A stretch of 64,000 nucleotides of DNA, from assembly GCA_037447655.1 (NCBI GenBank), contig JBBHKE010002817.1:61112-125111 (forward strand). Direction: 5' to 3'. The notes under the pieces are model-generated. The model was not told where the DNA came from. It worked only from the letters and a program-made list of their open reading frames with translations, and made no database searches. The first letter of the stretch is position 1, and every line of letters begins with the position of its first letter. Positions 8,634-54,149 of the stretch are shown here, piece by piece. This DNA comes from Zygnema cylindricum. Its lineage: Eukaryota; Streptophyta; Zygnematophyceae; Zygnematales; Zygnemataceae. Position numbers and translations under genes: made by a program.

Positions 8634-9384
8634 TGAAACTCTGAGACCTCCATAGGTCCTCAGAGTGGACAGCTTCCAAGAAGCCTCTAGGATAATCCTG
8701 ACCCCTTTGTGTTTAAGCAAAAATAACTGCCACCCTGGCAGACAAAAACTCTGACCAACTTCACCCCTGTGAAGACAAGACTCCCCTGAGTCGATAGCAA
8801 AAAGAATCTCTGAATTTGCTCCCCTGAGCAGTAAGTTATGGAGGGTCAAAGTTGACCTTTTGTACAGAAGCTCTCTGGGAGAGAGGGTCCTATCTTCTAA
8901 TTTTTCTAAGTCTTATCTCTCTCACAGACTCTATCTACTGATGTACGGAACCAATCAGAATTGAGTTCCGTACGCAAAAGTACAGCTGCCGGTGTACTTT
9001 ATGTACGGATTTTGTACGACATGGCCAAAATGTCGACACATGTCAAATCCGGATTCGGTGTCATAATCTCCGGAGTTTCCACAATCCAACGGAATTTTGC
9101 CACGCGTCATCCGATGTGGCGATGGCCACAAACCGCCGAAATCTTCCTCCGCGATCTCGGTGCTAATCCCGGCCGTCCGATTAAATTCGGCTTTAATCGT
9201 AGCCGTAATAAATACATGCGCGGTATTTGTTTCATTTGCGAAACAAATGCGCGGTACTGATTTATGTCCGTACCGTAAGTTGTACATTACATATTACTGG
9301 ATCTATGTATCCCGTAATTAATTCTAGTTAAATGGTTTATCGGTTGTATACATATATAAATAATTATCAAACTATATGCTAGGT

Positions 9385-9475
9385 AACAGTACCGCTAGAT
9401 GAAACGGCTAAGGCTACCGGCTACTTCCTATCTGCCGGCCGGCAGGTTCAAGGATCAAATCCTGCCGCCGGCATA
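9385..9475 (+). other. tRNA-like block in the B 3' LTR (antisense)
   Basis: Reads cggctaaggctaccggc (D-arm-like), then a GC-rich arm and a B-box-like GGATCAAATCC at 9452-9462 flanked by GGCAGG/CCTGCC. It has the same position and orientation as in the other LTR families and a perfect copy at 14785-14875 in the 5' LTR. Confidence 0.5.
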
Positions 9476-9549
9476 TACATTTTAATTAAATATATAAACC
9501 CTAATATAAAATTCCCGTAAACCTCAGGATAGCCAAGGTAGCCATGGCT

Positions 9550-9611
9550 CTAGCTTCCTCTCCAATTTCTCAGTGACTGCGACAAGTTTGAGAGTTGGAG
9601 AGAGAAGTTAG
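9550..9611 (-). promoter_or_regulatory. Conserved LTR hairpin (B, 3' LTR)
   Basis: CTAGCTTCCTCTCCAA (9550-9565) pairs with TTGGAGAGAGAAGTTAG (9595-9611), a stem of about 16 bp with one bulge and one wobble pair, around the shared loop core. Copied at 14950-15011. Confidence 0.6.
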
Positions 9612-9682
9612 AGATAGACTGCCTCGACTTCTATATTTCTTTTCAGACCTAGAAAATACTAATAAAACCATTAGTTTCTACA

Positions 9683-9690
9683 CTCCCCTT
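9683..9690 (-). other. Copia B polypurine tract
   Basis: AAGGGGAG on the element strand abuts the 3' LTR start. Copia A has the same tract; E has AAGGGTAG and I has a similar AGGGGAG. It would prime plus-strand DNA synthesis. Confidence 0.8.
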
Positions 9691-9695
9691 ATTTT

Positions 9696-12684
9696 CTAGT
9701 CAATCTTTAATTTCAGACCACACTTCTCCCTGCAAAAAATTAGTTTAGGGGAAGGCACAGGTTTGGTCATCATATCTGCTATCATCTCACTATCTGGTCT
9801 GTACTCTAAACTGATTATTTTGTTTTCTACTTTCTCTCTAACAAAGCTGAGTCTGATGTCCATGTGTTTGGCTTTAAAATGGTGTTTAGGATTGGCAGAA
9901 ATAGCGATTGCTGCCTGATTATCACAAAATATTTTCTGCACTCCACTCTTAAGGTGACCAAGCTCACCAAGCAAAGACTTGACCCACATCAATTCTTTTA
10001 CAGCAGAGCAAGAGGCCATATACTCAGCCTCCATGGTGGACTGAGCAATAACCTTTTGCTGTTTGCTACTCCAACAGCAAGCCCCATCACCCACATATAA
10101 TACATATCCAGAAGTACATCTCCTCATCGGAGCATCACCATAACTGGCATCACTCCAAGTAGTGATGTTAGTATTCTCCCCACCCAAATGCAACCATAGA
10201 TCTCTAGTTCCTACCAAGTATCTAAGGACTCTCTTAGCTGCCTCCCAATCCTTCTTAGTGGGAGCATTTAGACTTCTACTCAGCACTCCTACAGCTGCAG
10301 CTAAATCCGGCCGGGTACAATTCATAAAATAGATTAGACTTCCCACTACTTGCCTGTAAGGAATAGTCTGCATGAACTTCTGTTCTTCAGGAGATAATTC
10401 CTCGTCTAAGACTATGACTCCTTCTTCCTCACTCCCCTCACTTCCCTTCTTCAATTCCATTGGAGTTGTGCAACTATTAGCTTTATCCATTTGAAATTTT
10501 TCAAGCATGTTTCCTATTGCTTCCTTTTGAGTCAATCTTATAATTTTCCTTTTTCGGTCTCTCTCTACTTGAATTCCCAAAATATATTTTGCTTCCCCCA
10601 TATCCTTCATTTCAAATCTCCCCTTAAGATCGGTTTTCAGTTTATTAATTTTTTCCATTGATTTACTTAAAACAAGCAAATCATCAACATAAATTGCAAT
10701 AAATATAAAACCTTCCTCATCTTCGAAAACATAGATTGAGTGATCTGAGCTGATCCGAATATATCCTAGACCGGTAAGAAACTCATCAAGCTTCTTATTC
10801 CACTGTCGGGGCGCCTGTTTCAAACCATAAAGAGATTTAATCAGCCGGCATACCTTACTCTCCTCTCCTTCTTCCACAAACCCTTCGGGTTGTCGCATGA
10901 AGATCTCCTCTTCTAATTCTCCATGCAAAAAGGCTGTTTTGATGTCCATCTGGTGCACTTCCATGTCTTCCGCCGCTGCTAAACTGAGAAGTATGCGGAC
11001 GGAGGGAAATCTGACCACCGGGGCAAAGGTTTCCTCGTAGTCAATTCCTTCCTTTTGTGTAAATCCCTTTGCCACTAATCTGGCCTTGTAGCGCTCGATT
11101 GTGTTATCTGGGTTCAGTTTCAGTTTGAAAACCCACTTACAACCGATTGGTTTTCGGTTAGGTGGACAGTCCACCAGCTCCCAAGTATCGGCTGCCATGA
11201 TTGAAGCCATCTCCTCATTGATGGCTGTCTTCCACCGGTTTCTTTCTGGACAAGTCATCGCCTCTCGATAAGTTTGAGGTTCATCTTGATGAGATAGTTT
11301 AGTTACCTTGTTATTAACCTGTTTTTCTTGCAGTCTTTTGCTACTTCTCCTCCCTCCCTCAAAATCTGAGGCCGGAATAGATGGTTCTCGTGGATTCTTT
11401 CGAACAAACTCGGCTTCTCCCCTATCCCTTGATTCCGAATCAATTTCCACCACGTCTTCCGCTTCGAGTAGAGTCGTCACTGGAGTTTCCACAGCCGAGT
11501 CCTTTTCGGTCTGATTTGTTCCTGCAAGAATGTCATCGTCTCTAAAACCTGGATAGTTAGGAAGCTCAAAGTCACCAGAATTTTCTGACTCAAATTTGAT
11601 TTTTACTGACTTTGTATATTTGAAGGGATCCACAGACTTTCCTTCATCCATAACTACTAGATGCTTTACTAAGATTATATCTTCTCTTTTTAGATCATAA
11701 ACTCTATATCCTTTAACATCCTCATCATATCCTAATAAGTATCCCGGTTTTCCTTTAGGATCTAGCTTCCAATTGGACCGATCAGTATCTAGACTGAATA
11801 CTTGACTGCCGAAAACCTTTAAATGAGATAAGTCTGGTTTCCGGCCTGTCCATCTCTCATAAGGTGTTTGATCTTTTATAGCTGAAGTAAGAACTCTATT
11901 TTTGAGGTAATTAGCACAGTTCATTGCTTCTGCCCAAAACCTTTTTCCTATCTTCTTATCCGACAACATACTTCTAGCACTATCACTTAGTGTTCTATTT
12001 AACCTTTCAGCTACCCCATTCTGTTCAGGATTTTCTGGCACTGTCTTTTGGTGTTGAACCCCATCTTCCCTCAAAAAATCCTCAAACTGGTTAGAAGTAT
12101 ACTCTCCACCATTGTCACTCCTTACTCTCTTGATTGGAGTTTCATGGAGTTTTTCGCTCCATGCTTTATATTGTCTAAAACAGTCCTCAGCTTCTGACTT
12201 GTTTTTCAAAAAATATACTCGGGAATACCGAGACCAATCATCAGTTATAGTCATCATAAATCTCTTCCCCCCCGGTGAGGGCACTCTAGCCGGTCCCCAA
12301 ATATCTGTGTGTACTAGATCTAGAAGTTTTTCTCCCTTGTAGGTGGCTGTTTTTGGAAAGGGTAATCTGTGTGCTTTACCTTGAGCACACCCACTACAAT
12401 CACTTATATCATCACTCTCACTGAACTGAATCCCTTCCACCACTCCCATCTTTTTCATCTCTCTTAACTTATCTAGATTCACATGCCCAAGCCTCTTATG
12501 CCACATCATAATATCATGAACACCAGCATAATAAAGTTTCTTCGTTTCATTACTTAAGATCAGCCTAAACATCCCATGGCTACCTTTCTCAGCAATGAAA
12601 TAGACATCCTCCTCAAAACTAGCAGTAAAGACTCCTTCCCTAGTGCTAGTGAAAAAACCCTTATCATCTAATACTGTGTAGAGA
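9696..12684 (-). CDS. Copia B pol: integrase, reverse transcriptase, RNase H
   Basis: Open from 12684; the first in-frame ATG at 12572 gives 958 aa, and residues below count from it. The integrase zinc site is H25, H30, C59, C62. The catalytic triad is D90 (HTD), D153 (RSDNGGEY) and E189, with the D-35-E spacing. A linker follows, then RT from about residue 460 with YVDD at 628-631, and RNase H towards the C-terminus with the MEAEYMA block. The order integrase before RT defines Ty1/copia. The frame differs from gag-protease: the text between LNKNLIS and LYTVLDDKG is shorter than in typical copia elements, so a small deletion with frameshift is likely. Otherwise I see no lesion. It acts in the virus-like particle and then the nucleus. 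Confidence 0.95.
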
Positions 12685-14053
12685 TAAGGTTTTTGTTCAG
12701 CTCCGGAATAAACAATACATCGGAGAATGTTAATATGGATGTCTTTCCTTCAACTAACACTTTCAGATCTACCGATCCTACAAGAGTAGTGGTGACTATC
12801 CTCCCATCCCCGTACTCTATTTCTACGGTGGGAATCTTTCTTATCTTAGTGAACAGGTGTCTATCCTTACACATGTGCATTGAGGCACCTGAATCTATAA
12901 TCCAGCTTGCTTCACCTTTCAATCCACCGTAAGCACATTTCTGCCTTCGTGGAATTTCAACCTCAGTTTTCGCCTCCAACTCCTCATCCAAAAGGAGCTC
13001 ATCGTTCTCGTCCTCGGATTCCGCCTCAAGTACCTGTGTGACAAGGGCCTTTTTCTTTCCTCTCGGGGTACCACCGGTCTGCCCCTCCTTTAACCGAAGC
13101 TCGGTTAGCTTGGTGCACTCTGCCATATAGTGCCCAGGTTTCTTACAAAAATGACATAAACCTTTGGGAGCCCTTGGTTCGAACTCGTCAACCTGTTTTT
13201 CCCGCTCCCTACCCCCATAGTTTCTGACTGGTTTCCGGGAATCCTTGTTCCTCCAATCGGTCGCTGTTGCCAAGGCTTGGCCACTCTTTCCTCCCCTTCG
13301 GATCTCAATCGTATTCTCTCGAACGAGAATCATCCCTACCACTGAGTTCCATATCCACCTTGAGTCCGGCAAGTCCTGCACACGGTTGACTATGTTCTCG
13401 AACTCATCAGGTAACTTCATTAGTAAACAGTTAACTTTTTCTTTTTCACTAAAAACTTTACCCGCACTCTCTAGCTCCATGAAGAGTGTAGCAAGCTCAT
13501 TGCAAAAATCCAACATATTTCCCCCTTTGTATACATACTCCTTAACTTTCTGATCAGCCAACTGTTGTTGCTGAATCGTACCACTTCGGTACATCTCTAT
13601 GAGAGCCATCCAAAGATCGGATGCCCTCTCTACCTGCAAATGAGGACATGCAAGTCCTTGAGTGAGATGGCGTAGGATGAAGTGCTTTGCCGCCATATTG
13701 TTGAAGTCCCAGGTTTCAGTATCATTCTCCTCGTTCCTCGGAATAGGTGACATGAATGCTAAACCAGTTGCTATTGGTGTGGTCGCCTCCTTCTCCTTTC
13801 CTTTGTCCACCACCTCTCCTTCCTTTGTTTCCTCCGTTGAAGGTGAATCCTCTTTCCTGGTGAATCTGCTTCCTTTAAACCCTGGAGGAATTCCAAGACT
13901 TGATGGACGCCCCAATCGTCCACTCACTATCCCCCAAAACCTTTTTTCGCATAGAGCTCCTATCATCATACTTTCCCAGTATATGAAGCCAGTTCCATTA
14001 AATATTGGCACCCTAGAGGGTGGGCCCATAACCTGAAACTCTGAGACCTCCAT
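12668..14053 (-). CDS. Copia B gag-protease
   Basis: 461 aa starting MEVSEFQVMGPP. The ATG at 14053 lies inside the 5' LTR, 20 bases before its end, and the primer site is translated as QVMGPP. The capsid-like region spans about residues 100-250. The zinc knuckle is C300, C303, H308, C313 (CHFCKKPGHYMAEC). The retropepsin active site is D387-S-G-A. The protein ends at LNKNLISTQY, where the frame breaks before integrase. Copia elements normally use one continuous gag-pol frame, so the break is read as damage. A programmed shift is possible but no slippery signal is obvious. Confidence 0.93.
   Translation of the reverse strand: MEVSEFQVMGPPSRVPIFNGTGFIYWESMMIGALCEKRFWGIVSGRLGRPSSLGIPPGFKGSRFTRKEDSPSTEETKEGEVVDKGKEKEATTPIATGLAFMSPIPRNEENDTETWDFNNMAAKHFILRHLTQGLACPHLQVERASDLWMALIEMYRSGTIQQQQLADQKVKEYVYKGGNMLDFCNELATLFMELESAGKVFSEKEKVNCLLMKLPDEFENIVNRVQDLPDSRWIWNSVVGMILVRENTIEIRRGGKSGQALATATDWRNKDSRKPVRNYGGREREKQVDEFEPRAPKGLCHFCKKPGHYMAECTKLTELRLKEGQTGGTPRGKKKALVTQVLEAESEDENDELLLDEELEAKTEVEIPRRQKCAYGGLKGEASWIIDSGASMHMCKDRHLFTKIRKIPTVEIEYGDGRIVTTTLVGSVDLKVLVEGKTSILTFSDVLFIPELNKNLISTQY
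14022..14033 (-). other. Copia B primer-binding site
   Basis: GGTTATGGGCCC directly after the 5' LTR with no spacer. It is an exact 12-base complement to the anticodon arm of initiator tRNA-Met, and not to the tRNA 3' end used by most plant copia elements. Confidence 0.85.
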
Positions 14054-14257
14054 AGGTCCTCAGAGTGGACAGCTTCCAAGAAGCCTCTAGGATAATCCTG
14101 ACCCCTTTGTGTTTAAGCAAAAATAACTGCCACCCTGGCAGACAAAAACTCTGACCAACTTCACCCCTGTGAAGACAAGACTCCCCTGAGTCGATAGCAA
14201 AAAGAATCTCTGAATTTGCTCCCCTGAGCAGTAAGTTATGGAGGGTCAAAGTTGACC

Positions 14258-14425
14258 TTTTGTACAGAAGCTCTCTGGGAGAGAGGGTCCTATCTTCTAA
14301 TTTTTCTAAGTCCTATCTCTCTCACAGACTCTATCTACTGATGTACGGAACCAATCAGAATTGAGTTCCGTACGCAAAAGTACAGCTGCCGGTGTACTTT
14401 ATGTACGGATTTTGTACGACATGGC
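14258..14425 (-). promoter_or_regulatory. Copia B promoter block: GTAC cluster, CCAAT, degenerate TATA
   Basis: On the element strand the order is a run of six GTAC cores within 80 bp (14340-14420), ATTGG (CCAAT box, about 14350), then the tract CAGTAGATAG, and TGTACAAAAGG as a poor TATA-like site near 14260. LTRs K, F and D have the same order with better TATA boxes, which supports this as the U3 promoter. The transcription start is inferred to lie about 200 bp from the LTR end. Confidence 0.5.
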
Positions 14426-14784
14426 CAAAATGTCGACACATGTCAAATCCGGATTCGGTGTCATAATCTCCGGAGTTTCCACAATCCAACGGAATTTTGC
14501 CACGCGTCATCCGATGTGGCGATGGCCACAAACCGCCGAAATCTTCCTCCGCGATCTCGGTGCTAATCCCGGCCGTCCGATTAAATTCGGCTTTAATCGT
14601 AGCCGTAATAAATACATGCGCGGTATTTGTTTCATTTACGAAACAAATGCGCGGTACTGATTTATGTCCGTACCGTAAGTTGTACATTACATATTACTGG
14701 ATCTATGTATCCCGTAATTAATTCTAGTTAAATGGTTTATCGGTTGTATACATATATAAATAATTATCAAACTATATGCTAGGT

Positions 14785-17436: not shown

Positions 17437-18965
17437 CCTAGGAGGTGTGCGTGAAAATCTTGCAATCCATTCCACACACTGATGCTTCCCCGAATCTGTG
17501 ACCATGCCCATCTCGGTTCTTCACCCCCCCCAGGGATATGCATAGATAATAATGAGGAATGGAGTGGAAAAGAGAAAATACTTGGTACCCCCCCATAATG
17601 TGCTTTTTCCCACCGGAAGCAGAATAAATGCTACTCCCCTGACAACTCTCTAAAGAATAGGGAAGGAAGGATAGTCGTTTGATCCGGCCCCTAAGAACTC
17701 AGGACAGAAAAACCCAATGATGACCACAAGAGTACGCAAATAACTCCCACAAAGATATATAAAAACAATAAAAATCGGCTCTTTCAGATTTAACAATATC
17801 ACCTTGCCCCAGAGAATGGAATAAGATATAGGTAAACAATAATGGTGAAGCAAGCAAACATACCCCGGAGAGCAAAGATGACCAAACCCAGAAGAAGGAA
17901 ACTCTCCCAATGGCCCCTAAGACAGGTATGAGTCTCCCTCACCCCTCGGTTCCGCCGTACGGATCCGACAAGACTCTTCTAAGTTTCAAACAGCAAAAGT
18001 CCAAACCGCCCAATGAGAGAATAGTGCCAACCACCCACCCGAGCTACGGTCTCCACAAAAGACAATCCAAAACAAAAATGGCAATAGAGTCAACGACACA
18101 ATGCAACAGTTCTCCAACCTAAAGGTTGATTTAATTCTCTGTGGGTTTTCTCAGGAGACAGTACTGAAAAAGCAACCTGTCTCCCCCGACCCCAAGTGCC
18201 TTATACAATCAAAGTTTGTCCTACTGCAAGTGCCAAAGTCAAAGCAATGTGGCAAGCAATCAGCGGCGAGCAATCGTTACCACACGGACACTAGACAAGA
18301 GAGTTTGTACTACACTAAGGGCTAAAATATAGACGACTAGTTTCGGCTGGATTAGCGGCCGAAGGTCCTCCTATAATACACAAAAGGGCAACAAAGTTCT
18401 GATTCCACGTGAAACCGCCTAACTTTGACCCAATACATAAATGCTTTGCCCGTCTATTGGGCCTGAACTGATATCCTACTGATAGCTAACAGTAAGATCT
18501 AAAGGATAATCCCAAAGGTTGCGTGTCGTTTTCTAATATATCCCTCTACTAGAGCTACATAGAACACACAATATGATAGAGCAAACACTTTGCACTGGAC
18601 TAACTCCGCCGTTCGGCATCCGTTGAAGGTGATCACAATCGCGTAGTGCTCCTGGGTGAAAATATAAAGATCTTATCCGGCTGGTTGTCCTCCCCCTCTC
18701 CGTACGCTAGAGTCCGTACAAGGTGGAATGAAGCCCCAGAAATGCCAAAAATGCACACGAGCTTGACAGCAATCGAGCATGCGTGAGAACAAGAAGGTTT
18801 AGGTAAGATGTCTAAGGAGGTGTGCGTGAAAATCTTGCAATCCACTCCACACACTGATGCTTTCCCAGATCTGTGACCATGTTATCTCTGCTCCTTACCC
18901 CCCCCAAGGGATATGCATAGATAATAATGAGGAATGGAGTGGAAAAGAGTAAATACCCGGTACCC
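17437..18965 (-). repeat. Gypsy G LTR region shared between G1 and G2
   Basis: Lies between the 5' end of G1 and the 3' end of G2, both minus strand. 17640-18150 matches 54410-54840, the LTR of G4, by eye. A 155-bp direct repeat marks its edges (about 17437-17590 and 18811-18965), each copy with C-tracts and the string ggatatgcatagataataat. Only one LTR fits here, so G1 and G2 may share it as a tandem. Exact ends and the primer site are not resolved. Confidence 0.5.
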
Positions 18966-19017
18966 CCCCCAGATCCCCCCCCCTCTTAGTCCCGCATGAA
19001 TAAGAGGATTAGACCGG

Positions 19018-20390
19018 TCAGCCGCCAAATTCGCAGTCCTCACAGAACCACAAATTTGCGGGTTAAGAGCGGGGCTCCCAATTTAAAGGTAGGCAGCCGT
19101 CATGCCACCCCTGGTGACAGTGTTCACACACCAACAGGAGGTCCAGTACAGAGGACCCATGGCAGGCAGAGGAACAGGATGGCGGGTCTGCAAAGTAAGT
19201 GAGGTGGAAAGTGGGTTCATCCTCTAACCCTCGTAGATGGCAAGGGGCCACATTGATATGATTTTCTTTAATTTTGCGGCCATCCTTCCCTTCCACGGTA
19301 AGAACCCCTTTGTTTGACACCTCCACAACTTTCAAAATCACTTGTCCGGCCGAAATATCCAAAGTGTCCTTCTTCCGTTGCATGCGATACACAAAATCCC
19401 CGGGCACAAATCGCCGTTGCCAGGGGACGTAATTGCCGCTCCGGCGTTGGGACTACCAAAGTTGATCCCTGTGCTGAGCAGCTTATAAGTTGCCTATGGC
19501 CAGAGGTATTTTGCGCTGAAAAACCTTAGCCTTGTCGGCAATCAGTTTCTCGACAGTCCCCCGGTTGGCCATCTCCGGAAGCACAACCGCATGAGCCGAT
19601 GCAGGCTTGGGTAGGATGGGATGTCGGCCGAAGAGAATGAAGAAAGAGCTATAGGAGTGGATGGTTGCATGCCGGCAGAACCTCTACCCCATGGCAATCC
19701 AAGGCACCCGTGTGTCCCACTCCCCCAAATCCTCTCCCACTGCATATTTCTGTAGTGACCGCTTCACTATGTGTACGCACCTCTCAGCCAATCCGTCGGC
19801 TTGGGGGTGGTCTCGGCTGGTTAACCTGTGGTCAATGAGGCACTTCTCCAGAAGGTTAGAAAATTCTTCGGCAAACTCGGAGCCCTGATCTGTCAGAACT
19901 TCGGCTGGGGCTCCAAATTAAGACAACACTCTCTGCAAGAATGCGTCCGCGATCGCTTTGGACTCCTTTCGAGAATGAACCACCAATTCAATCCATTTAG
20001 AGAAGTGTTCAATCATGACCTGACCAAAACGGTTCCACCTCCGGCTAGTGGGAAGTGGTCCCAGCAGATCTAGTTACCATCTGTAAAACATTCCCCAAAT
20101 GGGGAGGGAGTGAAGTTCAGTCACACCCTTTTTGTCAATAGCACCTTTCACTCGGTCACAGGAAGGGCACGTCTGCACCACACAATTGACCTAGGCCCAC
20201 AACCCATGCCACCTATACGACCCTGTGACTAGCAAGGTGGTTCGTTTCTGTCAAAGTGCCCGCATTGTAGGTGAAGCCGAACAATGAGCGTTTCCCGATC
20301 TGCCGAAGGAGGAACCACTTTCCTCGTCCCATCGGCCCATTTTCGGAGAAGAATGCCTCTGTCCCATTCATAAGCCGCCATTCGGTTATG
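19018..20390 (-). pseudogene. Gypsy G2 integrase with C-terminal PHD-like finger
   Basis: Integrase fragments in several frames, including the zinc-binding start and the C-terminal domain FVPGDFVYRMQRKKDTLD...DGRKIKENHINVAPCHLRG. After this, instead of a chromodomain, comes a C4HC3-like zinc finger (19021-19176): CSSAC, VCEHC, GWHDGC and WFCEDC in order, the pattern of a PHD finger. An in-frame TAA at 19063-19065 sits before the last cysteine pair, and the frame then stays readable to a second stop at 19018. The integrase would join element DNA to the genome. The finger would be expected to read histone tails and steer integration; that role is inferred. Confidence 0.75.
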
Positions 20391-22119
20391 AACACGGGAC
20401 AATTGACTTCCGGCAAGGTGGGGTAGAGGAGAGCCCTTCTGGATAGATTGGAGGGAATCGGTGTCATTCCATATATCCTTTCGGCCAGCTCTAATGGGGG
20501 CCTGTCCTTCAACATCTGCAGCAAAAGTTGATAGTTCTCCTTCAGCTCGAGGAAGCCAAATAAAAGCAGAAGAAGCTCGGATAAGTCCCAAGCTGAGCTC
20601 AGGGTCCTCATCGTGCCGCGCCCCAGTAGAGTCTCTGGTGGACGGGCCTGGATTCTTGCTGAGTCCGTCGGCATTCCCATGAATCTCCCCGGCTCTATAG
20701 AAAATGCTGAAATCATATTCTTGGAAGATGAGAACCCATCTGGCTAACTTTCCCGTCAACTTACTTTTCTCCATGATCCATTTAAGGGGTTGGTGATATG
20801 TAATTAGGGTGAAGTGTACTCCATAGAGGTAAGGCCGGAAGTGTTGGATGGCCCACACTGCGGCAAGTAATTTCCCATGGTAACCGTTGTAATTCCCCTC
20901 GGCTTTGTTATTACTCCAGCTTGCGTAGGCCACTACATACTCAGCCCCAGCATCGTCCATTTGAGCCAACAAAGCTCCCAATCTGAACCTGCTCCAATCT
21001 GTGTAAAGGAGAAAAGGCCGCTGGTGATCAGGCACCCAGAGCACCGGATGCTGTTTTGAGGGAATCCTTCAGGAATTGGAACGCTATCTATTGTTCTTCT
21101 TTCCACTACCACTCCTGGTCCTTTCACAACAACTGATTCAATGGCTGAGCGTGGCTACTGAATTCAGGTATAAACCAGCGGTAATAGTTGGCAAGGCCCA
21201 GGAAAGTAGGAAGAGCTTAAATGTCCTGCAGAGGTGGGAGAGTGTCTAGGGCGGCCACCTTAACCATGTGGGGGCCCACTGTCTCGGGAGTCACCTCATG
21301 ACCCAAATAAATGATTTTCTGCACCCCAAAGATGCCCTTCCCCGGGTGACACTTTAAGCTTGATGCTTTGAGCTCCCGGAGAACAATCTGTATATGCTTA
21401 TAGTGTTCCTCGAATGTCTTGGAGAAGAAGATTACATCGTCAATGTAGCATCGGGCGAAGTCAATTCCTTGGAGAGCCTTGTCCATGGCCTGTTGGAATT
21501 TGGCAGGTCCATTTTTGAGGCTAAAGGGCATGTATAGCCATTCATACAACCTGGATCCTGCCCAAAAAGCAGTTCTCTCCCGGTGCTTCGGCTCCATTGC
21601 AATCTGGTGAAATCCATTCTTCATATCCAACGTGGAGTAGATGGTGGCCCTAGCAAGAGAGTCGAAGATCTCTTTCGGGGTTGGCATAGGATAACGGTCA
21701 AAGACAGTTGTCGCGTTGAGCATCCAGTAGTCCCCACACATCCGGAAATCTACCGTTTTTCTGGAGGAGTCTTTCTTTGGCGGGAGTACGGTTTGTGAAG
21801 CAAACCCATGTAGCCCTGTACTCTCCTCAACGAGCCCTGGGTCCAACAAAGTGTGCACCTTTGAAGTGATAAACTCCTTCTCCTTGAAACTGAGAGGGTA
21901 CTGTTTGTGCCAAATAATTGCCGTCTCATCGATCAGGTCAATTCGAAAAGGGGTCCCCTTATAGATCCCTACATCTATGTCAAACCAAGCGAACACCTGC
22001 CCGTTCTCTTCTAATAGCTTAGCGAGTCGGGCCTTTTGCTGTGGGTCTAGCTGTTCACCTAGAGTCCAGTCCATCTTCCCGAGTTCCACTGCCGCCAATG
22101 CTTTCTGTGGCCTACCCAA
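20391..22119 (-). pseudogene. Gypsy G2 reverse transcriptase and RNase H
   Basis: RT (21217-22119, about 300 aa open) carries DFRMCGDYWMLN, STLDMKNGFHQIAMEP, LYMPFSLKNGPAKFQQAM and the catalytic CYIDDVIFFSK. RNase H (20229-21044) begins at FLLYTDWSRFRLGALL, with HQPLKWIME and GNADGLSKNPG. Stops and a frameshift near 21050-21216 separate them. RT before RNase H before integrase is the Ty3/gypsy order. Confidence 0.88.
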
Positions 22120-22712
22120 GAGGGAGATGTCGAAGTTCAGCTCTACCTGTGGATATGTCCCTTGTTCGGCTGTTATAACGCTGCTGCTGAAAACTATCCC
22201 TAAGCTGTCCTATTCTGAGCTTCCGTCCCCCCCCACTGAGGAAACTCCTGGGTCAATGTGCTATCGCTCCCCCCCACTGAGGAAGTTCCTAGAATTGGTA
22301 TGCTATTTAAATGTAATTTGGTGAATGTGAATTTTTCCCTCCTTGTCTTTCTCCCCCCGTCAAGCTTTAGAGTTGCGTGCATGGCCAGCAACTGTGGGGC
22401 TTGAAGGTATGTTGTCCGTGATGGTGGAGACTGAAAACTTGAGAATGCAAGAGAATGTTTCAGCACCCAGGAAATTGCATTTAAACCCATACTTTGTCCG
22501 ATTAAACTGCACCTTCTTGAGGGCGAGACCCCTGGCGCGGCTGTGGTTCTTTGTTGAAATCCCATTGCTTGTTCCCTTTTTGCAATATTTGGCGCTGTCC
22601 ATGTGGCTGTTGTATTGTCAAAGATCATTCTTGGTGCGCCCTTCCGGTAAGCATGGCTATTAGGAAAAGATACCACGGTTGGTAGGGCCTTCCTTGGATA
22701 TCTGAGTTTATT
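22120..22712 (-). pseudogene. Gypsy G2 DNA methyltransferase C-terminus and linker
   Basis: 158 aa open (22200-22676) matching the end of the C5-methyltransferase domain of G5: VSFPNSHAYRKGAPRMIFD, then motif X-like REQAMGF, TTAAPGVSPSRRCSLIGQ and NAISWVLKHSLAF. A Ser/Gly-rich linker leads to RT. The catalytic motifs I-VIII are missing because the copy ends at 22712. Confidence 0.7.
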
Positions 22713-22714
22713 GC

Positions 22715-23321
22715 AACAGTCTCTCAGCGGTTCAACCCGTTACTACGGAAGAGGGTCGTAATCTTGATCCCCATATCAGTTTCCTTGATAACTCACGGGG
22801 ATCATTATCAGTGAACGGTGTTCATCCCACTCTTCTTCTCATGGACACCGGGGCAAAACCCGTGATCCTCGGATCCGGATTTGCGCTCAAGCTTGGTCTG
22901 ACAGCAGACAAGCTTCAGGTGACCACTACGCGTCTTCTTACTTCGGCTAAGACCACGGAGCCAGTCCTCGGAATCACAAAGGACCTGCTCATCTTTCGGT
23001 TTGAGACAGGAACCGAAAATGAGTCCGTTGAAATTGCGGTCAGAGCATTAGTCACTAAATGTGACGACTATGAGTGTTTGGTGGGTCAAGACGTTATATT
23101 CCGAATTGGCGGTGGTGTGGACATGCACGACAAAACATTTTTTTACCGACCGACACACTCTCCGGAGCGCAAAATCTGCCTCTCTCTCATTTCAGGCCGC
23201 CGACCTTTGCCCACTATGGCTCACTCGGCTACGGCTCTTCCCGCATTTTTAGGGAACTCCGTTGGGGAGGAAATTTTCCACTCTCTTTCGGCCGAAGAAA
23301 TTATACCGGATAGTTCCCCCT
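22715..23321 (+). pseudogene. Retropepsin fragment of another LTR element, plus strand
   Basis: Open from before 22740: LSVNGVHPTLLLMDTGAKPVILG, then ALKLGL and a second half ending YECLVGQDVIFRIGG. DTGA followed by hydrophobic strands is a retropepsin, the dimeric aspartic protease that cuts gag-pol. It differs from the G-family protease (VVDTGALPNLIT in G4) and is on the opposite strand, so it belongs to another element. It runs into an assembly gap. The first in-frame methionine is not obvious; the true N-terminus is missing. Confidence 0.7.
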
Positions 23322-28012: not shown

Positions 28013-29260
28013 ATCCTATTGTGAGTTTTTCCCTCCTTGCCTTTCTCCCCCCCTCAAGCTGTAGAGTGGCTTGCATGGCCAACAACTGTGGAGCTTGAAG
28101 GTATGTTGCCCGTGACAGTGGAGACTGTAGGTTGAAGAATGCCAAAAAATGTTGCAGCACCCAGGAAATTGCATTCAAATCCATACTTTGTCCGATTAAA
28201 CTGCACATTTGTGAGAGTGAGACCCCTGGGGCTGCCGTGGTTGTTTGTTGAAATCCCATTGCTTGTTCGCGTTCCTCAATATTTGGTGTTGTCTACGTAT
28301 CGGCTGTACTGTCAAATATCATCCTGGTGCCTCTTTTTGGTAAGCATGAGTGTTAGGGAATGATACCAGGAATGGTAGGGCTCTTTGTGGATTTCCACGA
28401 TTATTGCAACAGAAGAAAGGTACTAGGTTGGCTTTGGTCACGGAAGTGGCCATTGGCCCTGGTCCGAGAATCTGTTGAACTGTTATGATGGGATCTAGAA
28501 CCTGTGTTTTCAACAGCTGTTGGAGGATGGGAAGAGGAATCAAGTTAGTCCAATAAGCCTGAACCCTGTGGGCTCTTGATTCGATCTGAGCTGCATCAAA
28601 AACTATGGGAGTCCCCAGAACTTTGGTCACTTGGTTCTAGCTATTGACCACCTGTTTCCTTTTGTCATCACTGGGGTTAACATTTTCCAAGACGTACCCC
28701 ACTGGCGTGTCTTGGCGTCCTTGTAACTTTGTTATCATTCGCGTCATTTGAAAGAATGATCTGCTACGAACATCCTGGTGTCCCTTGCCCTGTCTTGCTA
28801 ACGAATACCCCTGGCACGGTCATCCAGCAATTACCATATCTACCCTTCCAAGATTCTCCAAATGTGACTTCGTGATGTTGTCCACATTCTTGGGAAGAGT
28901 GCGGTGAGAGTTAGACATGGCAGACACATGGAGTTGTTGTGGGTAAAGTTGGTGCAGCTGATGCAGTTGATACTCACTAACTGCACGGGCATCCGTGTCA
29001 ATTTTGACTGCCGAGTACGCTTCTACTCGGTATCCAGATATTAGAACGGCTTCCATGTCAGAACTAATGCCGGAAAAGAGTGATAGAATTCTGAGTATTG
29101 AAGGCGGGATCTCGAGTGACACCACTTGTAGATTGAAATCCTTCTTTTTGTTAGCGACTTTTAGAAGTTCTGATTGGATAACCTTTACGATTCCGGGTAA
29201 TTTTGCGACAAAGATACTGTCCACTTCCCGCCAAAGTGTGGTCATTTGTGCCAATCTGTT
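28013..29260 (-). pseudogene. C5-cytosine DNA methyltransferase domain encoded by gypsy G5
   Basis: The conserved C5-methyltransferase motifs follow in the right order. Motif I is ILSLFSGI (29066-29086). Next come an acidic KIDTDARAVSEYQL and LPKNVDNIT, then LENLGRVDMVIAG. Motif IV PCQGYS (28802-28819) holds the catalytic cysteine. Then DVRSRSFFQMTRMI, motif VI LENV (about 28679), a motif VIII-like SRAHRVQAYWTNL (about 28560-28600), and the C-terminal EREQAMGF, TTAAPGV and SLIGQSMDLNA (28190-28280). The AHRxxAYWTNL block recalls DNMT3/DRM-type enzymes, but I cannot assign the class. Lesions are a TGA just before PCQGYS, a TAG after VVNS, and a frameshift plus stop near 28300-28330. It would methylate cytosine in DNA; targets and timing are unknown. 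Confidence 0.85.
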
Positions 29261-29660
29261 CTGATACTCCCTTTCCCACCGTTTGGAAATAGGGAATTGC
29301 TAGATGGACTCCGCGATATCCGTGGAGCCTTCGAAAAGCTCCGAACGGGTGGATGCAGAGTACACTGGATAACATCCAAACACCGGAACAATTGTTCTCC
29401 CCCGATTCCATAAATCCAAAGGGACCACCACTTTTGTGCCATTGGGATTATCCGAGTTTGACACTGTAAATTGTTCCTTCCAAACGCTCATCTCTATGTA
29501 CAATCTTGTCCACGTCATACCCTACAAAATTTCAAATTGCTTACCTTCCACCACCAAGAAAGGAAGCTGAATTTGTACGCATTTTCCCCCGTCATCCGCA
29601 AATTCGATTTCCATTGCTTTTATGATACCATATACTCATTGCTCACCGTACTCAAGCATA
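29261..29660 (-). pseudogene. Gypsy G5 protease end and protease-methyltransferase linker
   Basis: Two frames together read VVEGKQFEIL, then GMTWTRLYIEMSVWKEQF and VVVPLDLWNRGRTIVPVFGCYPVY, the same text as G1 at 6561-6809. A frameshift near 29630 and stops at about 29300 break it. The FLVV...FEIL stretch resembles the last strands of a retropepsin. Confidence 0.6.
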
Positions 29661-32186
29661 TGTCACTTGGGCTGATTTCTAGCCAGAGTGTTTCGGGCAT
29701 TTGTTGCAATACTTTGGTGGTTATGATATTAAGGAGAGCTCCGATATCCACAACTGCATCTTGATACCCGCCGTATCCATTAAGTTTAAAATCTCCCATC
29801 CTCTTAAGAATAAGAGCCACTGACAGGGCCTTATAATCTTTATTCGCCATAGACGTTTTTGGTTCCACTAACATGAAGACTGTCTTGGGTGGTTCTGCCA
29901 ACGCGACCCTTTCCCTCTTGGTGTGAATCTCTTCCCCCAATGCCTGAATGAGGGTTTTTTTGGGGAGATTGTGGGAGACAGCTAGAGTCTTGACGTGCGT
30001 CAGGGCGAAGGGCATCAAGTGCCGCACTAGCATGACTGCCGGTTTGGAGGAAGGAGGTTGAGCTTTGGGCGATGAAATTGGTGAGTCCTCGTCCTCCGAT
30101 TTCTCCTGTCTCCCCCCCCCTTCTTCCTCACTTTCTGCGTCAGAATTTGCTGTTGGAGGTGTCATTGGCGGATCCGTGGATGGTCTTTCGGCAAAGTATC
30201 TTTCGAACCATTCCTGATCTGTTTCGGGGGTTGAAGGATCTTTTGCAGGCTGGGGATTCTTAAAATTTTCGAAACCAGGAGGAAGTTTCGTTGAATGTGG
30301 GGGATGCAGATGAGTCGGCTTGAGTCCCAGACCAATGTTACTATTCAGAAGGACTGCTCGCGGTGTGAAAGATAAGGGACCGGTGGTTTTGCGGCTGTGG
30401 TCCTTTTGTTCCATCGGTTGTTTGTCCTTCCTTTGGGAAGACGTTGTAGAGCGCAGTTGCCTTCGACTGTCCCCTATACCAACGTTCCAGGCTCCGGATA
30501 GCAATGTCCAAGCATGATGAGCCTTTGGAGGCTCCATATCCCAGCCCATTAGGTCATCATCATCTCCATCCACCGTGGTCTGCTGTTCTAGCTCCGCTAA
30601 CTTTTGTAGCAGTTATTGTTTTTGCTTCTGCAATTTCTGAGCCGGCGTAAGAAGTTGAGGAGTGCGGGCAAGGGATCTCAGTCGGAGAGCAGCCAGTTCT
30701 GTTGCCAAAGCGGCTTACTGGGTGCTTTGTTGCTAAATGATAAGTTTCGATATTAGTCTGCTGGGTCCCGGTTCATTAGGAGATTGACGTCCCCATGGAT
30801 ACAAAAGTTGCAACGGGAGAGGATTAACGGCAGTTTCCCCTTCACCTGTGAACAAAGCATATTGCATCATCTCTTTTGGAACCCCATTCTTCCGAAAGCA
30901 TTGCCCTTCTTTGTGGCCCATGAATCCACAAGCCTCACATTTTGACCCCTCAGCATTAAACTTCCCCCTTAGCTCATTAGAGATTTGAGAGTAATCAAAT
31001 TTCGGAAGTCGCATTTGTCTCAACTCGGATTGAGACATCTTAGCGGTTTCAGTTCGTGGAGTAGGTTTATATGTATCCTTGGTGACCGGGGTTTGGTCTA
31101 CTCCTCCGCCTCCTTGCTTACGTTCCTGCTGCTTCCTAGTTCTTTCTGCACGCTCTCTCTCAAACTCCTTCTGCTTGATGGATAGTTGTGGATTGAGCTT
31201 TCGGGGGCACCTTTTCCATCCGTGACCAGGCTGGTTACAGTTTAGGCTGTCGTATAGAAAAACTTTTTCATCTGCCCCCATTGCAGGCTCTGGTCGTGCA
31301 TCTGCCTCTTGTTTCCCCTTAAGCTTCAGCAAAGCTTGTAGTTCTGTCTATTCGTCGTGACTAAGTGATGTTTCCTCGGTGAAACCTGCAAAGTTGGCTC
31401 TTGATTTCCCGGTAACAACCTTTTCTCGTGCCTCGCTATTAACAAAATGATCATACAATTTCACAGCAGCCAATGAAATTTCTTGAGCAATGGGATTTCG
31501 GTCGTGTATAGCCTGACTTGCACTCCAATTGTCCAGAGCTACCTGTCCTGTTGGTCCAAAGGAATTCCTAACAGCAACATAATATTTGGTGGCTATAGCC
31601 GGTGTATCGATGGTGGACAAGTTGGTCTTCTGGGAGAGGCTTGAGAGGCGGTTCAACAGCGTCTGGGGTGTTTCATTCTTCAAACAGCCGAAGTCTGTGA
31701 ACTCCTTCATGGCAGTCTCGTTCCTTTCTGTGTAAAGGAGTCTCCAAGCATCCAGAAGAGTGGTACAGGGATTAGGAATAGCAACCATCCGGGTGGCCGC
31801 TTCGGCTGCCTGTACAGCTTGCAGGTGGTTCACGTAGGCCCTGCCTTGGGCCTGAAGTTTCATATCCATGGTGAAAGTAGGGGTGAGAGGAGCTGCTGCT
31901 GCGGCAGCCAAGTCGGCTGCTACCTGAAGAGCCTCGGCGTCCAAAGCCGGATCCGATATTTTGATACTAGGAGCCATCAACAAAGGTTGACCCTCCTTAT
32001 AATCAGCCAAAGCTCCTCCGGCTAGATAATTTACCATCATCGGGAACAGGGTTGTTTCAAAATCTGCTGGAATGGCCACCTCCCTTTTATTTGTTGATTT
32101 CGGACTGAGTGAAGGATTTCCACAACAGTTCAAAATTAGAGAAAGCAATTCCCGAGTTGTCCCCGATAAAGATCCGGACGTCTCCC
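29620..32186 (-). pseudogene. Gypsy G5 gag and retropepsin start
   Basis: Three long open pieces. 31348-32148 is the capsid part with an Ala-rich helix and KYYVAVRNSFGPTGQVALDNW. 30733-31332 carries zinc knuckles CNQPGHGWKRC (first cysteine pair changed) and CEACGFMGHKEGQC. 29620-30573 carries Pro-rich sequence, KLPPGFENFKN, and the protease start GYGGYQDAVVDIGALLNIIT, where DTGA has become DIGA. The N-terminus is cut by the LTR at 32187, within the MGDVRIFTGDSS-equivalent. Confidence 0.8.
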
Positions 32187-32829
32187 TGTAGAAACTAATG
32201 GTTTTTAAGTATTTTCTAGGTCTGAAAAGAAATAAAGAAGCCGAGGCAGTCTATCTCTAACTTCTCTCTCCAACTCTCAAACTTGTCGCAGTCACTGAGA
32301 AATTGGAGAGGAAGCTAGAGCCATGGCTACCTTGGCTATCCTGAGGTTTACGGGAAATTTGTATTAGTTAGGGTTTATTTATTTAAAAGGTATGTGCCGG
32401 CGATAGGAATTGATCCTTGTACCTACCGGTCGGCAGACAGGAAATAGCCGGTAGCCTTAGCCGTTAAGTCTAGGATTAATGTTACGTAGTATATAGTTTG
32501 ATAATTAATTAAATATGTATACGTACGATTATTCATTTAACTATAATAGATTACGGGATACATAGATCCGGTAATATATAAAGTACGGATTACGGTACGG
32601 ACTAAAAATCAATACCGCGCATTTGTTTCGTAAGTGAAACAAATACCGCACATGTATTTATTACGGCTACGATTAAAATTAGATTCTAATCGGACGGCCG
32701 CAATTAGCGCCGAGATCGCGGAGGAAGATTTCGGCGGTTTGTGGCCATCGCCACATCGGATGACGCGTGGCGAAATTACGTTGGATCGTGGAATCTCCGG
32801 AGATTATGGCACCGAATCCGGATATGAGA
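32187..32829 (+). repeat. B-family copia LTR, plus strand, 3'-truncated
   Basis: Starts TGTAGAAACTAATGG like copia B and follows that LTR to CACCGAATCCGGAT (about 32826), then turns into gypsy G6. It keeps a hairpin (about 32257-32318) and tRNA-like block (about 32400-32470, B-box on the minus strand). The promoter block and 3' end are lost. Preceding bases CTCCC have no partner. Confidence 0.8.
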
Positions 32830-33290
32830 ACACACGTTACGGATCCTAATATCACGGTCCAACAGATCCTCGAACCGGGGCGAATGGCCACTCCGGTGAT
32901 CACAGCCGACAAAGCACCCTTCTTTTGTTGTAATAAGCCTGGGTATCCACGGAGGGCCTTACCAACTCTGGTATCTTTTCCTAATAGCCACGCTTACCGG
33001 AAAGGCGCACCGGGAATGATCTTTGACAGTGAACCGCCACGTGGACAACGCCGAATATCACAGAACGGGAACAAGCAATGGGGTTTCAACCGGGAACCAC
33101 AGCTGCCCCAGGGGTATCGGCCTCAATAAGGTGCAGTTAATCGGACAAAGCATGGATTTAAATGCAATTTCCTGGGTGCTGAAACATTCTCTTGCATTCT
33201 CAAGCCTTCAGTCTCCACAATCACTGACAACATACCTTCAAGCTCCACAGTTGTTGGCCATGCAAGCAACTCTAAAGCTTAGGGGGGGGA
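32830..33290 (+). pseudogene. Gypsy G6 methyltransferase C-terminus
   Basis: Reads DPNITVQQILEPGRMATPVI, APFFCCNKPGYPRRALPTLVSF and then, in a shifted frame, EQAMGFQPGTTAAPGV and LIGQSMDLNAISWVLKHSLAF. A one-base deletion near 33138 links the frames. It is fused downstream to RT by a Gly/Ser/Leu-rich linker, showing methyltransferase and RT in one polyprotein. Confidence 0.7.
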
Positions 33291-35239
33291 GAGAGACAAG
33301 GAGGGAAAAATTCACATTCACCAAATTCCCAGGAACTTCCTCAGTGGGGGGAAGCAATGGCACACTGGACCCAGGAGTTTCCTTAGTGGAGGGGAACGGA
33401 GTCTCAGAACAGGACAGCTTAGAGGAAGTTGTCAGCAGCAGCGTTTTGACAGCCGAACAAGGGACAGACCCACTGGTAGAGCTGAACTTCGACATCTCTC
33501 TCTTGGGGAGACCACCGAAAGCATTGGCGGCAGTGGAACCCGAGAAGATGGACTGGACTCTAGGTGAACAGCAAGATCCACAACAGAAGGCCTGGCTCTC
33601 CAAGCTGTTAGAAGAGAACTGGCAGGTTTTCGCCTGGTCTGACACAGATGTAGGGATCTATATGGGGACTCCTTTCCGGATTAACCTGATCAACGACACG
33701 GCTACTGTTTGGCAGAAACAGTACCCTCTCAACTTCAAGGAGAAGGAGTTCATAACTTCAAAGGTGCAGACTTTGGTGGAAGTTGGGCTGGTTCAAGAGA
33801 GTACAGGACTACATGGGTTTGCCTCACCAACCGTGCTCCCGCCAAAGAGAGACTCCTCCGAAAAAACTGTAGATTTCCGGATGTGTGGGGACTATCGGAT
33901 GCTCAACGCGGCAACTGTCTCCGACCGTTATCCTATGCCCACCCCGGAAGAGATTTTCGACTCTCTTGCTGGGGCCACTATTTACTCTACTTTGGATATG
34001 AAAAATGGATTCCACCAGATTGCAATGGAGCCGAAACACCGAGAGAGGACTGCTTTTTGGGCCGGATACAGGCTATATGAATGGCTGTACATGCCATTTG
34101 GCCTCAAGAATGCACCTGCCAAATTACAACGGGCCATGGACGAGGCTCTCCGGGGAATTGACTTCGTACGATGTTATATCGACGATGTTATCATTTTCTC
34201 CAAGACATTTGAAGAACACTTGGAGCAGCTACAGATCGTTCTCCGGGCACTCAAAGCAGCGGGCTTGAAGTGTCACCCGAGGAAGGGCATCTTTGGGGTG
34301 CAGAAAAATTTTTATTTGGGTCATGAGGTGACTCCCGGGACAGTGGGTCCCCACATGGTTAAGGTGGCAGCCCTAGACGCTCTTCCACCCCCTCAGGACA
34401 TTTCTGCTGTTCGTACTTTCTTAGGTCTTGCCAACTATTACCGGCGGTTTATTCCTAAATTCAGTAGCCACGCTCAGCCATTGAACCCATTGTTGCGAAA
34501 GGACCAGGAGTGGCAGTGGAAGGAAGAACAGCAGATAGCGTTCCAATTCCTGAAGGATTCTCTCAAACAGCATCCTGTGCTCCGGATGCCCGATCACCAG
34601 CTGCCCTTTCTCCTTTATACAGATTGGAGCAGGTGCGGATTGGGAGCAGTTTTAGCTCAATTGGACGACGCAGGGGCTGAGTATGTAGTTGCCTACGCAA
34701 GCCGGAGTAATAACAGAGCCGAGGGGAATTACAGCAGTTACCATGGGGAATTACTTGTCGCGGTTTGGGCCATCCAGCACTTCTGGCCTTACCTCTATGG
34801 AGTGCACTTCACCCTTATTACGGATCACCAGCCCCTCAAATGGATCATGGAGAACAGTAAGTTGACTGGAAAGCTGGCCAGATGGGTTCTCATCTTGCAG
34901 GAATATGATTTCAGCATCATCCATAGAGCCGGGGAGATTCATGGGAATGCCGACGGACTCAGCAGGAATCCGGACCCTTCCACCAGAGACTCTACTGGGG
35001 CGCGACATGGCGAGGACCCTGAGCACAGCCTGGGACTTATCCGGGCTTCCTCTGCTTTTATTTATCTGCCTCGGGTCGAAGGAGAACTGTCAGCTTTTGC
35101 TGCAGATGTAGAGGGGCAGGCCCCCATTGGAGCCGGCCGGAAAGATATATGGAATGACAGCGATTCCCTCCAATCTATCCAAAAGGGCTCTCCACTATCC
35201 CACCTTGCCGGAAGTCAATTGTCCTGTGTTCAGAATTGA
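33023..35239 (+). pseudogene. Gypsy G6 reverse transcriptase and RNase H
   Basis: 738 aa open. The linker is followed by RT with DFRMCGDYRMLNAATVSDRY, YSTLDMKNGFHQIAMEP, LYMPFGLKNAPAKLQRAMDE and intact CYIDDVIIFSKTFEEH, the thumb region QDISAVRTFLGLANYYRRF, and RNase H from FLLYTDWSRCGLGAVLAQLD to AGEIHGNADGLSRNPDPS. The frame ends at a TGA (CVQN*MAAYEW) where G2 has Arg, a typical CGA-to-TGA change. It would copy element RNA into DNA in the particle. Confidence 0.93.
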
Positions 35240-35822
35240 ATGGCGGCGTATGAATGGGACCGAGGCATCCTTCTCCGGAAATGGGCCGATGGGACAAGGA
35301 AAGTGGTTCCTCCTCCAGCAGATCGGGAAACGTTCCTTGTTCGGCTTCACCAGCAATGCGGGCACTTCAGACAGAAACGAACCACCTCGCTAGTCACAAG
35401 GTTGTATTGGTGGCATGGGTTGCGGGCCCAAGTCAATCGTGTGGTGCAAACGTGCCCTTCCTGTGACCGGGTAAAAGCAGCTTTTGACAAAAATGGTGGA
35501 ACTGAGCTTCACTCCCTCCCCATCCGGGGGATGTTTTACAAATGGTCACTGGATCTGCTAGGACCACTTCCCACTAGCCAGAGGGGGAACCATTTTGTTC
35601 TGGTCATGATTGAACACTTCTCTAAATGGATATAATTGGTGGTTCTTCCCCGAAAGGAGTCCAAAGCTATCGCGGACGCATTCTTGCAGAGAGTGTTATC
35701 TCAATTTGGAGCACCGACCGAAGTTCTGACGGATCAGGGGTCAGAGTTTGCCGGAGAATTTTCTAACTTTCTGGAGAAGTGCCTCATTGACCACAGGTTG
35801 ACCAGCCGAGACACTGGTTGAT
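35240..35822 (+). pseudogene. Gypsy G6 integrase, truncated
   Basis: Zinc-binding part RLHQQCGHFRQKRTTS...CPSCDRVKAAF and core SLDLLGPLPTSQRGNHF, VMIEHFSKW, VLTDQGSEFAGEFSNF. A TAA replaces Glu after FSKWI. It ends at about 35815 before the catalytic Glu region, so the C-terminal domain and PHD-like finger are absent. Confidence 0.88.
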
Positions 35823-52845: not shown

Positions 52846-52924
52846 TTATTGCGGCCGCTGCGATTGCCCCTCTGGTGAAACCGGCTTTCCGGCTTTCCTC
52901 ACTCTGCTGAAACCGGCGCAGCAA

Positions 52925-53900: not shown

Positions 53901-54145
53901 TTCTATCTTCGAAAAATATTTAGCACCTCGAAGTCGATCTAATAATTCGTCTATCGTCGGTAATGGGTACGCATTCTTCACCGTTATTATGTTTAGTGCT
54001 CGGTAGTCTATACACATACGGAAACCTCCATCTTTCTTGTTTTGTCGAGCGTGCCCGAGAATCCCAAAGAAAGGGCCCACAGCCCGGGGTAGTTGTCCTC
54101 GGATTCCTGCAAAGAACCCCTCCCCCCCAAATGCGAAAGGCTTCC
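53901..54145 (-). pseudogene. J RT N-terminus
   Basis: [43 protein letters not shown], the start of a chromoviral RT. It breaks off and runs directly into integrase, so the YxDD region, RNase H and the integrase zinc site are deleted. Confidence 0.85.
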
Positions 54146-54149
54146 CAGA

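What the first reader, a model, noticed from the sequence alone, without database searches (positions are those of the whole stretch)
28013..29260. A DNA cytosine methyltransferase built into a Ty3/gypsy polyprotein
Between retropepsin and RT, G5 encodes motif I LSLFSGI, the catalytic PCQGYS, LENV, SRAHRVQAYWTNL and a motif X-like end, in the order of a C5-methyltransferase. G2 (22200-22712) and G6 (32830-33290) keep its C-terminus fused to RT, so it is a family trait and not a chance neighbour. Retrotransposon-borne methyltransferases are rare; I recall reports for dinoflagellates and a charophyte. Whether this position between protease and RT, and this lineage, is new needs checking.
Basis: partly seen in the sequence, partly recalled or inferred. 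Interest (0 to 1): 0.92.

Follow-up and report, generated by a model that had tools for sequence, protein, structure and literature searches.

The report
DNMT3-type methyltransferase inside Gypsy retrotransposon
A repeated jumping gene in this genome carries its own DNA-methylating enzyme, of the kind that cells use to silence jumping genes; the kind was known from one alga, but here it belongs to a wider and odder family.

The parts
28021..32186 (-). G5: truncated family-A element remnant (gag - protease - DNMT), ends before RT
   Evidence: blastn to sister copy L009 2475-6596, 82-89% identity
28131..29101 (-). DNMT3-type C5-methyltransferase domain (broken in this copy; ends estimated from the translation)
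   Evidence: motifs in three-frame translation; PF00145 E 2.3e-5 for 28641-28819; sister copy PF00145 8.2e-13
29300..29302 (-). in-frame TAG between protease and DNMT, context TAG CAA TTC CC
   Evidence: TAG in 22 of 22 family-A copies that hold the site; a 23rd (L043) lacks the site
28820..28822 (-). premature TGA just before the catalytic PCQ
28637..28639 (-). second premature stop (TAG) inside the DNMT domain
29620..30612 (-). protease-side ORF of G5 (aligns with the L006/L009 stretch that weakly matches aspartyl protease)
   Evidence: L006 Asp_protease_2 E 2.1e-4, 22.3 bits against a cut-off of 24.3; no Pfam match for the window copy itself
30733..32250 (-). gag-side ORFs of G5
   Evidence: no gag Pfam match
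18900..22719 (-). G2: DNMT C-terminus - RT - RNase H - integrase of family A
   Evidence: L009 6204-10000, 88%
17610..18741 (-). terminal repeat (A repeat) of a family-A element next to G2
   Evidence: 84.6% to the A repeat of L015
23536..26253 (-). further family-A RT - integrase fragment
   Evidence: L009 7279-10000, 90%
32825..35812 (+). G6: DNMT C-terminus fused to RT - RNase H (739-aa open frame 33020-35239)
22717..23321 (+). protease fragment of family B (the ECQG-type DNMT element)
   Evidence: 95.5% to L013
54463..57520 (-). gag/protease and A-repeat remnant of a more distant relative
   Evidence: 72-77% to L009 and to the A repeat

Best explanation
G5 is a decayed copy of a Ty3/Gypsy retrotransposon family that carries a DNMT3-type cytosine-5 methyltransferase in its polyprotein between protease and RT, a relative of KnitGypsy-Dnmt3. 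Shown here: domain identity, order, family-wide presence, long-term purifying selection, a conserved UAG between protease and DNMT in family A, split direct repeats, and in two family-B copies TG...CA ends with exact 4-bp target duplications. Inferred: Gag-protease is made in excess; occasional UAG readthrough yields Gag-PR-DNMT-RT-RH-IN-PHD, so the DNMT enters the particle with Pol, and after reverse transcription it methylates the element's own double-stranded cDNA (most likely at CG) before integration, so that the new copy looks host-like to the host.
Against: No activity, expression or readthrough data. The isolated K. nitens domain gave no methylation in yeast, which its authors call inconclusive (PMC5890265 section 10). 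The context UAG-CAA-UUC departs from the CARYYA readthrough motif (recalled) at its last base, and invariant codons occur elsewhere in the frame too. C-to-T differences in window copies against L009 are raised about equally at CG (12.0%) and CHG (11.5%) over CHH (6.8%), a host-like pattern and not a CG-only signature; other changes at C are raised at CG as well (8.5%). Family B has no stop at the junction, so readthrough is not general. dN/dS was measured on copies chosen for lacking stops; one of the 14 (L045) has lost the catalytic Cys and L037, L041 and L043 have other changes in or near motifs IV and VI. Exact target duplications were seen in 2 of 4 family-B copies only.
Confidence: 0.7

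Rival explanations
1. The DNMT domain is kept for a non-catalytic or non-DNA role: binding nucleic acid in the particle, methylating the element's RNA, or helping integration-site choice together with the PHD finger.
For: 50 of 133 sequences have Glu instead of Pro before the catalytic Cys; the Haematococcus and Pleodorina proteins keep partial matches between RNase H and integrase in which motif IV is changed or not aligned; K. nitens domain inactive in yeast (inconclusive).
Against: PC or EC, and so the Cys, is kept in 122 of 133 and the motif-VI EN in 109 of 133; the predicted fold is a full DNMT3-like domain.
Confidence: 0.2
2. The enzyme acts in trans on host chromatin: it dampens its own family or changes host methylation, which limits damage to the host and so favours the element.
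For: Copies are many; C-to-T differences at CG and CHG exceed CHH.
Against: A plant-type CMT exon exists in this genome (L007) and would explain the CHG signal; nothing ties the element's enzyme to it.
Confidence: 0.08
3. The conserved UAG is an ordinary end of ORF1, and ORF2 (DNMT-Pol) is started by re-initiation or from another RNA.
For: Context is not a full CARYYA motif (recalled); metagenomic relative P0001 is predicted to start at a Met inside the DNMT ORF.
Against: Same frame on both sides and no Met at the start of ORF2 (QFPISKRW...); the codons right after the stop are conserved beyond the amino acids.
Confidence: 0.25

Closest known systems
KnitGypsy-Dnmt3 of Klebsormidium nitens (de Mendoza et al. 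2018, PMC5890265; sections 6, 9, 10, 11 read; figures not held)
   Same: Dnmt3-related, unrearranged domain in the Pol of a Gypsy element; DIRS-like repeat layout with Gypsy enzymes; purifying selection. K. nitens protein P0033 has DNMT before RT as here, 42% identity over 63% of the query.
   Different: Here two families in one genome, a conserved UAG between protease and DNMT in family A, an ECQ catalytic motif in family B, and a PHD finger; the paper's main text has no hit for PHD, Marchantia, Closterium or readthrough and calls the event an independent acquisition in the K. nitens lineage.
SymbioDIRS-Dnmt3 of Symbiodinium (same paper)
   Same: Dnmt3-type domain in a Pol that shares an ORF with RT; A-coding-B-A-B repeats; de novo CG methylation shown in yeast.
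   Different: Tyrosine recombinase instead of DDE integrase; dinoflagellate host. Not compared by sequence here.
DNMT3 / plant DRM enzymes
   Same: Best sequence and fold matches are DNMT3A/B.
   Different: No PWWP/ADD match in the Pfam scan; motif order not rearranged, unlike DRM; element domains split from 7 outgroup rows at 100/99.
Readthrough retroelements (MLV, recalled; SIRE1 by stop codon suppression, passage in PMC2829016; Tca2 UGA, start of abstract in listing)
   Same: In-frame stop with coding frame on both sides.
   Different: Here the stop separates Gag-protease from DNMT-RT-RH-IN; not tested experimentally.
Chromoviruses (Gypsy with a chromodomain after integrase; starts of abstracts in listing)
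   Same: A chromatin-reader-like domain at the end of integrase.
   Different: Here a PHD finger (PF00628 2.2e-10 in L012; 0.0044, below cut-off, in L009), not a chromodomain.

Membership tests
KnitGypsy-Dnmt3-like Gypsy elements | DNMT domain in one open frame with Gypsy RT, RNase H and DDE integrase | tested here: met
   L009 and L011
KnitGypsy-Dnmt3-like Gypsy elements | DNMT sequence related to the K. nitens element's | tested here: met
   P0033 E 1.1e-49, 42%; element DNMTs split from 7 outgroup rows at 100/99
KnitGypsy-Dnmt3-like Gypsy elements | DIRS-like split direct repeats | tested here: met
   A1...B1-A2-B2 in C1344 (A 931 bp 100%; B 243 bp 99.6%); C1374 A 97.5-98.7% over 888+298 bp, B 218 bp 99.5%, but with extra sequence on its 3' side
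DNMT3 family C5-methyltransferase | motifs I to X in unrearranged order, best match DNMT3 | tested here: met
   motif X by eye
DNMT3 family C5-methyltransferase | falls inside the cellular DNMT3 clade | tested here: inconclusive
   no cellular plant DNMT3 was obtained; the tree has 7 distant outgroup rows only
Active DNA C5-methyltransferase | methylates DNA | not testable with these tools
   catalytic Cys kept in L009 and L011
DRM | rearranged motif order (VI-X before I-V) | tested here: not met
   motifs run I to X; PDB DRM chains match only over one half
DIRS order | tyrosine recombinase | tested here: not met
   rve and Integrase_H2C2 matches instead, no tyrosine recombinase match
Stop-readthrough retroelements | conserved in-frame stop with conserved 3' context | tested here: met
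   TAG in 22 of 22 copies that hold the site; CAA in 21 and TTC in 21 of the 22 (L022 TAA, L029 TTG)
Stop-readthrough retroelements | fusion protein made | not testable with these tools
   needs assay

The most novel reading that the evidence does not exclude
DNMT-bearing Gypsy elements form one old green-lineage group (streptophytes with DNMT before RT, chlorophytes with a remnant between RNase H and integrase), in which a captured DNMT3 was kept, moved once within the polyprotein, put under UAG readthrough in one branch, and chemically altered (Pro to Glu beside the catalytic Cys) in others. They package a methyltransferase with reverse transcriptase, methylate their own cDNA, and use a split-repeat replication cycle that ends in DDE-integrase insertion.
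Probability: 0.3. Interest if true: 0.8.

Novelty: new variant of a known kind. Interest (0 to 1): 0.62.

Why it matters
Retrotransposons that carry the host's own silencing enzyme are a puzzle: why keep a DNMT? If it is translated only with Pol and rides in the particle, the target is likely the element's own cDNA, which can be tested. The distribution and the two layouts suggest that the K. nitens case is one member of an older group and not a lone capture. The ECQ sequences are a natural test of whether a C5-methyltransferase can work without the Pro of its catalytic motif, and the split repeats plus a DDE integrase call for a replication scheme of their own.

Tried and rejected
Chance or lone copy: rejected. 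DRM, DNMT1/CMT or DNMT2 identity: rejected on match scores and motif order. Plain LTR layout: the first repeat pair found in C1344 had no target duplication; comparison with C1407 showed B repeats around the second A copy, and with the true ends (TGTCA...CGACA) exact 4-bp duplications appear in 2 of 4 family-B copies where both ends were found (C1344 TTGG, C2602 CCCC); C449 matches at 3 of 4 bases, C2526 does not match (its end is changed); the C783 3' end was not found in the piece fetched; family-A C1374 has no matching duplication and carries extra sequence on its 3' side.

Downstream RNA structure at the UAG: only a 5-bp TTCCC/GGGAA hairpin and a weak second one (covariation term -0.24); not counted as evidence. 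Methylation footprint: weak and host-like.

Host identity: not established. No RuBisCO large subunit match; requests for PF00504 and PF00012 did not complete. The L007 exon matches maize chromomethylase (4fsx; that name is recalled, the PDB label says methyltransferase 1) at 3.7e-29 and other DNMT1 chains at about 1e-12 or weaker, which points to a green-lineage host. Whether a cellular DNMT3 gene exists here was not tested.

Absence of DNMT from 68 of 141 RT-bearing sequences (61 of them RT-RH-IN) was not read as loss: many of those predicted proteins begin just before RT, so a DNMT in an upstream frame would be missed. The 141 are 139 returned proteins plus my L009 and L011; the proteins are the listed hits of three searches, of which one search listed 120 of 2609. 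In the motif-IV census the 133 sequences include L009, L011 and outgroup rows that passed the threshold. Foldseek 'pdb' was never accepted; the VIA-align second look was used.

Papers, searches: on DNMT3 in retrotransposons I found nothing beyond PMC5890265 and one sentence in PMC12344493 (section 5, which names Copia and DIRS). PMC9033089 and PMC6317226 were searched for terms only. Most listed papers were not opened. Only open-licence PMC papers are held and figures are not, so a description elsewhere cannot be excluded.

Full report
WHAT IS IN THE WINDOW. The DNMT lies on the minus strand. Reading 26.3-30.7 kb in three frames gives motif I LRILSLFSGI, PCQGYS, YVLENV, SRAHRVQAYWTNL and, in another frame, CSLIGQSMDLN. 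The copy is dead: TGA at 28820-28822 and TAG at 28637-28639. blastn to the sister copy L009 shows that G5 is gag-protease-DNMT only (28021-32186) and stops before RT; G2 (18900-22719) and G6 (32825-35812) begin inside the DNMT and run on into RT. A protease piece of a second DNMT family (B) lies at 22717-23321.

COPIES IN THE SAME GENOME. A PF00145 search of the window's assembly (352.8 Mb, 2689 contigs) scored 123 of 782 first-look candidates and listed 123 matches, a lower bound that includes host genes; one of them, L007, is a host exon that matches maize chromomethylase best. A search with the family-A domain scored 113 of 1912 candidates and listed 114 matches at 65-100% identity. Family A (L006/L009) has a 1520-aa frame with DNA_methylase, RVT_1, RNase H, integrase zinc binding, rve and a sub-threshold PHD (0.0044); family B (L011) has one frame of at least 2321 aa with a sub-threshold zinc knuckle, DNA_methylase, RT, RNase H and rve; in sister copy L012 the integrase frame ends in a PHD finger (2.2e-10). 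L009 has stops in gag besides the junction TAG.

SELECTION. Fourteen family-A domains without stops: 91 pairs, of which 42 have saturated dS and 1 is identical; L009 against the diverged subfamilies has dN 0.16-0.22 with saturated dS; the 26 pairs with dS 0.1-1 have median dN/dS 0.215; the 48 usable pairs have median 0.150 and range 0.05-1.69. The highest values come from close pairs, where neutral decay after insertion weighs most (inference). Family B: 4 of 15 pairs usable; L011/L027 0.164, L012/L027 0.169, L026/L032 0.213, L011/L012 0.32 on a dS of 0.004; RT of L011/L027 and L026/L032 is 0.021 and 0.273. The copies were picked from the hit list for lacking stops; L045 has lost the catalytic Cys, and L037, L041 and L043 have other changes in or near motifs IV and VI.

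THE UAG. Between protease and DNMT, family A has an in-frame TAG, usually TAG-CAA-TTC-CC. Of 23 family-A copies fetched with this region in view, L043 lacks the site; the other 22 all have TAG (L003/L020, L009, L010, L018, L019, L021-L024, L029, L034-L042, L044, L045 and the window), although DNA identity around it falls to about 65%. CAA follows in 21 (L022 has TAA) and TTC in 21 (L029 has TTG). In a 13-copy codon alignment that does not include L022 and L029 both codons are invariant, whereas 27 of 250 conserved columns keep a single codon. Family B has no stop there. Readthrough is therefore inferred, not shown.

REPEATS AND INSERTION. In C1344 a 931-bp repeat A lies upstream of the coding frame and again downstream (100% identical), and a 243-bp repeat B flanks the downstream A (99.6%). 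C1374 (family A) has the same B-A-B at its 3' side. A pattern for the B1-A2 junction, CGACA-GC/AC-TGTCA, occurs in 11 fetched loci of both families (9 GC, 2 AC). In C1344 and C2602 the outer ends are TG...CA with exact 4-bp duplications; two further family-B copies gave 3 of 4 bases and no match. The 2018 paper states that the K. nitens element has the repeat layout of a DIRS element with Gypsy domains; the finding here agrees and adds target duplications as expected of a DDE integrase.

RELATIVES. Protein searches found proteins labelled Klebsormidium nitens, Marchantia polymorpha and Closterium sp., EukProt entries and many metagenome proteins. In one search there is a wide gap between element domains (E below 1e-18) and other methyltransferases (E above 1e-7). 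Of 141 sequences with RT (139 listed proteins, L009, L011), 23 have DNMT before RT and 50 have it after RNase H (49 of these before integrase), partial matches included; 68 show none. The RT tree of 25 rows parts the two layouts with support 100/99, and in the domain tree the 36-row clade that holds the RT-bearing second-layout rows is supported at 100/100; the roots are not secure. Haematococcus and Pleodorina proteins carry only partial matches in the second position. Motif IV is PC in 72 and EC in 50 of 133 sequences, outgroup rows included.

HOW IT LIKELY WORKS. Gag-protease in excess, readthrough to DNMT-RT-RH-IN-PHD in family A (inferred), a DNMT3-type enzyme in the particle (inferred), methylation of cDNA before integration (inferred; the 2018 authors suggest this for DIRS-type elements). 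Against it: the K. nitens domain was silent in yeast, which the authors call inconclusive.

NOVELTY. The kind is known. New relative to the papers found: the two layouts and their distribution, the conserved UAG, the PHD finger, the ECQ variant, and the duplications at the split-repeat ends. Searches are listed under Tried and rejected.

Noticed in passing
P0188 and P0196: Gypsy polyproteins from metagenome contigs carry a precomputed PF05869 (Dam adenine methyltransferase, name recalled) besides RT and integrase: a second kind of methyltransferase in Gypsy elements.
   Followed up: no
P0122, P0124, P0177 (Haematococcus lacustris), P0162 (Pleodorina starrii): Partial DNMT matches between RNase H and integrase; where the motif-IV stretch is aligned (P0177) it reads GWEYPHLP, without the catalytic Cys.
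   Followed up: partly
window 8910-14693: A near-complete Copia element: ORFs of 463 and 1017 aa (9696-14059) between repeated flanks at about 8910-9293 and 14310-14693, by eye.
   Followed up: no
window 52846-54284 (-): A chromovirus-like Gypsy fragment: integrase and a chromodomain-like end (YEVEEIL...EYLVRWKGY), by eye.
   Followed up: no
L007:1498-1797: Host cytosine methyltransferase exon closest to maize chromomethylase (4fsx), pointing to a green-lineage host.
   Followed up: partly
L015:1-133, 3964-4181 and 5369-5585: The family-A copy on C1374 has three B-repeat copies and about 3.7 kb of other sequence between the first and second; not explained.
   Followed up: partly
G000: No RuBisCO large-subunit match in the assembly; plastid contigs may have been removed.
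   Followed up: no
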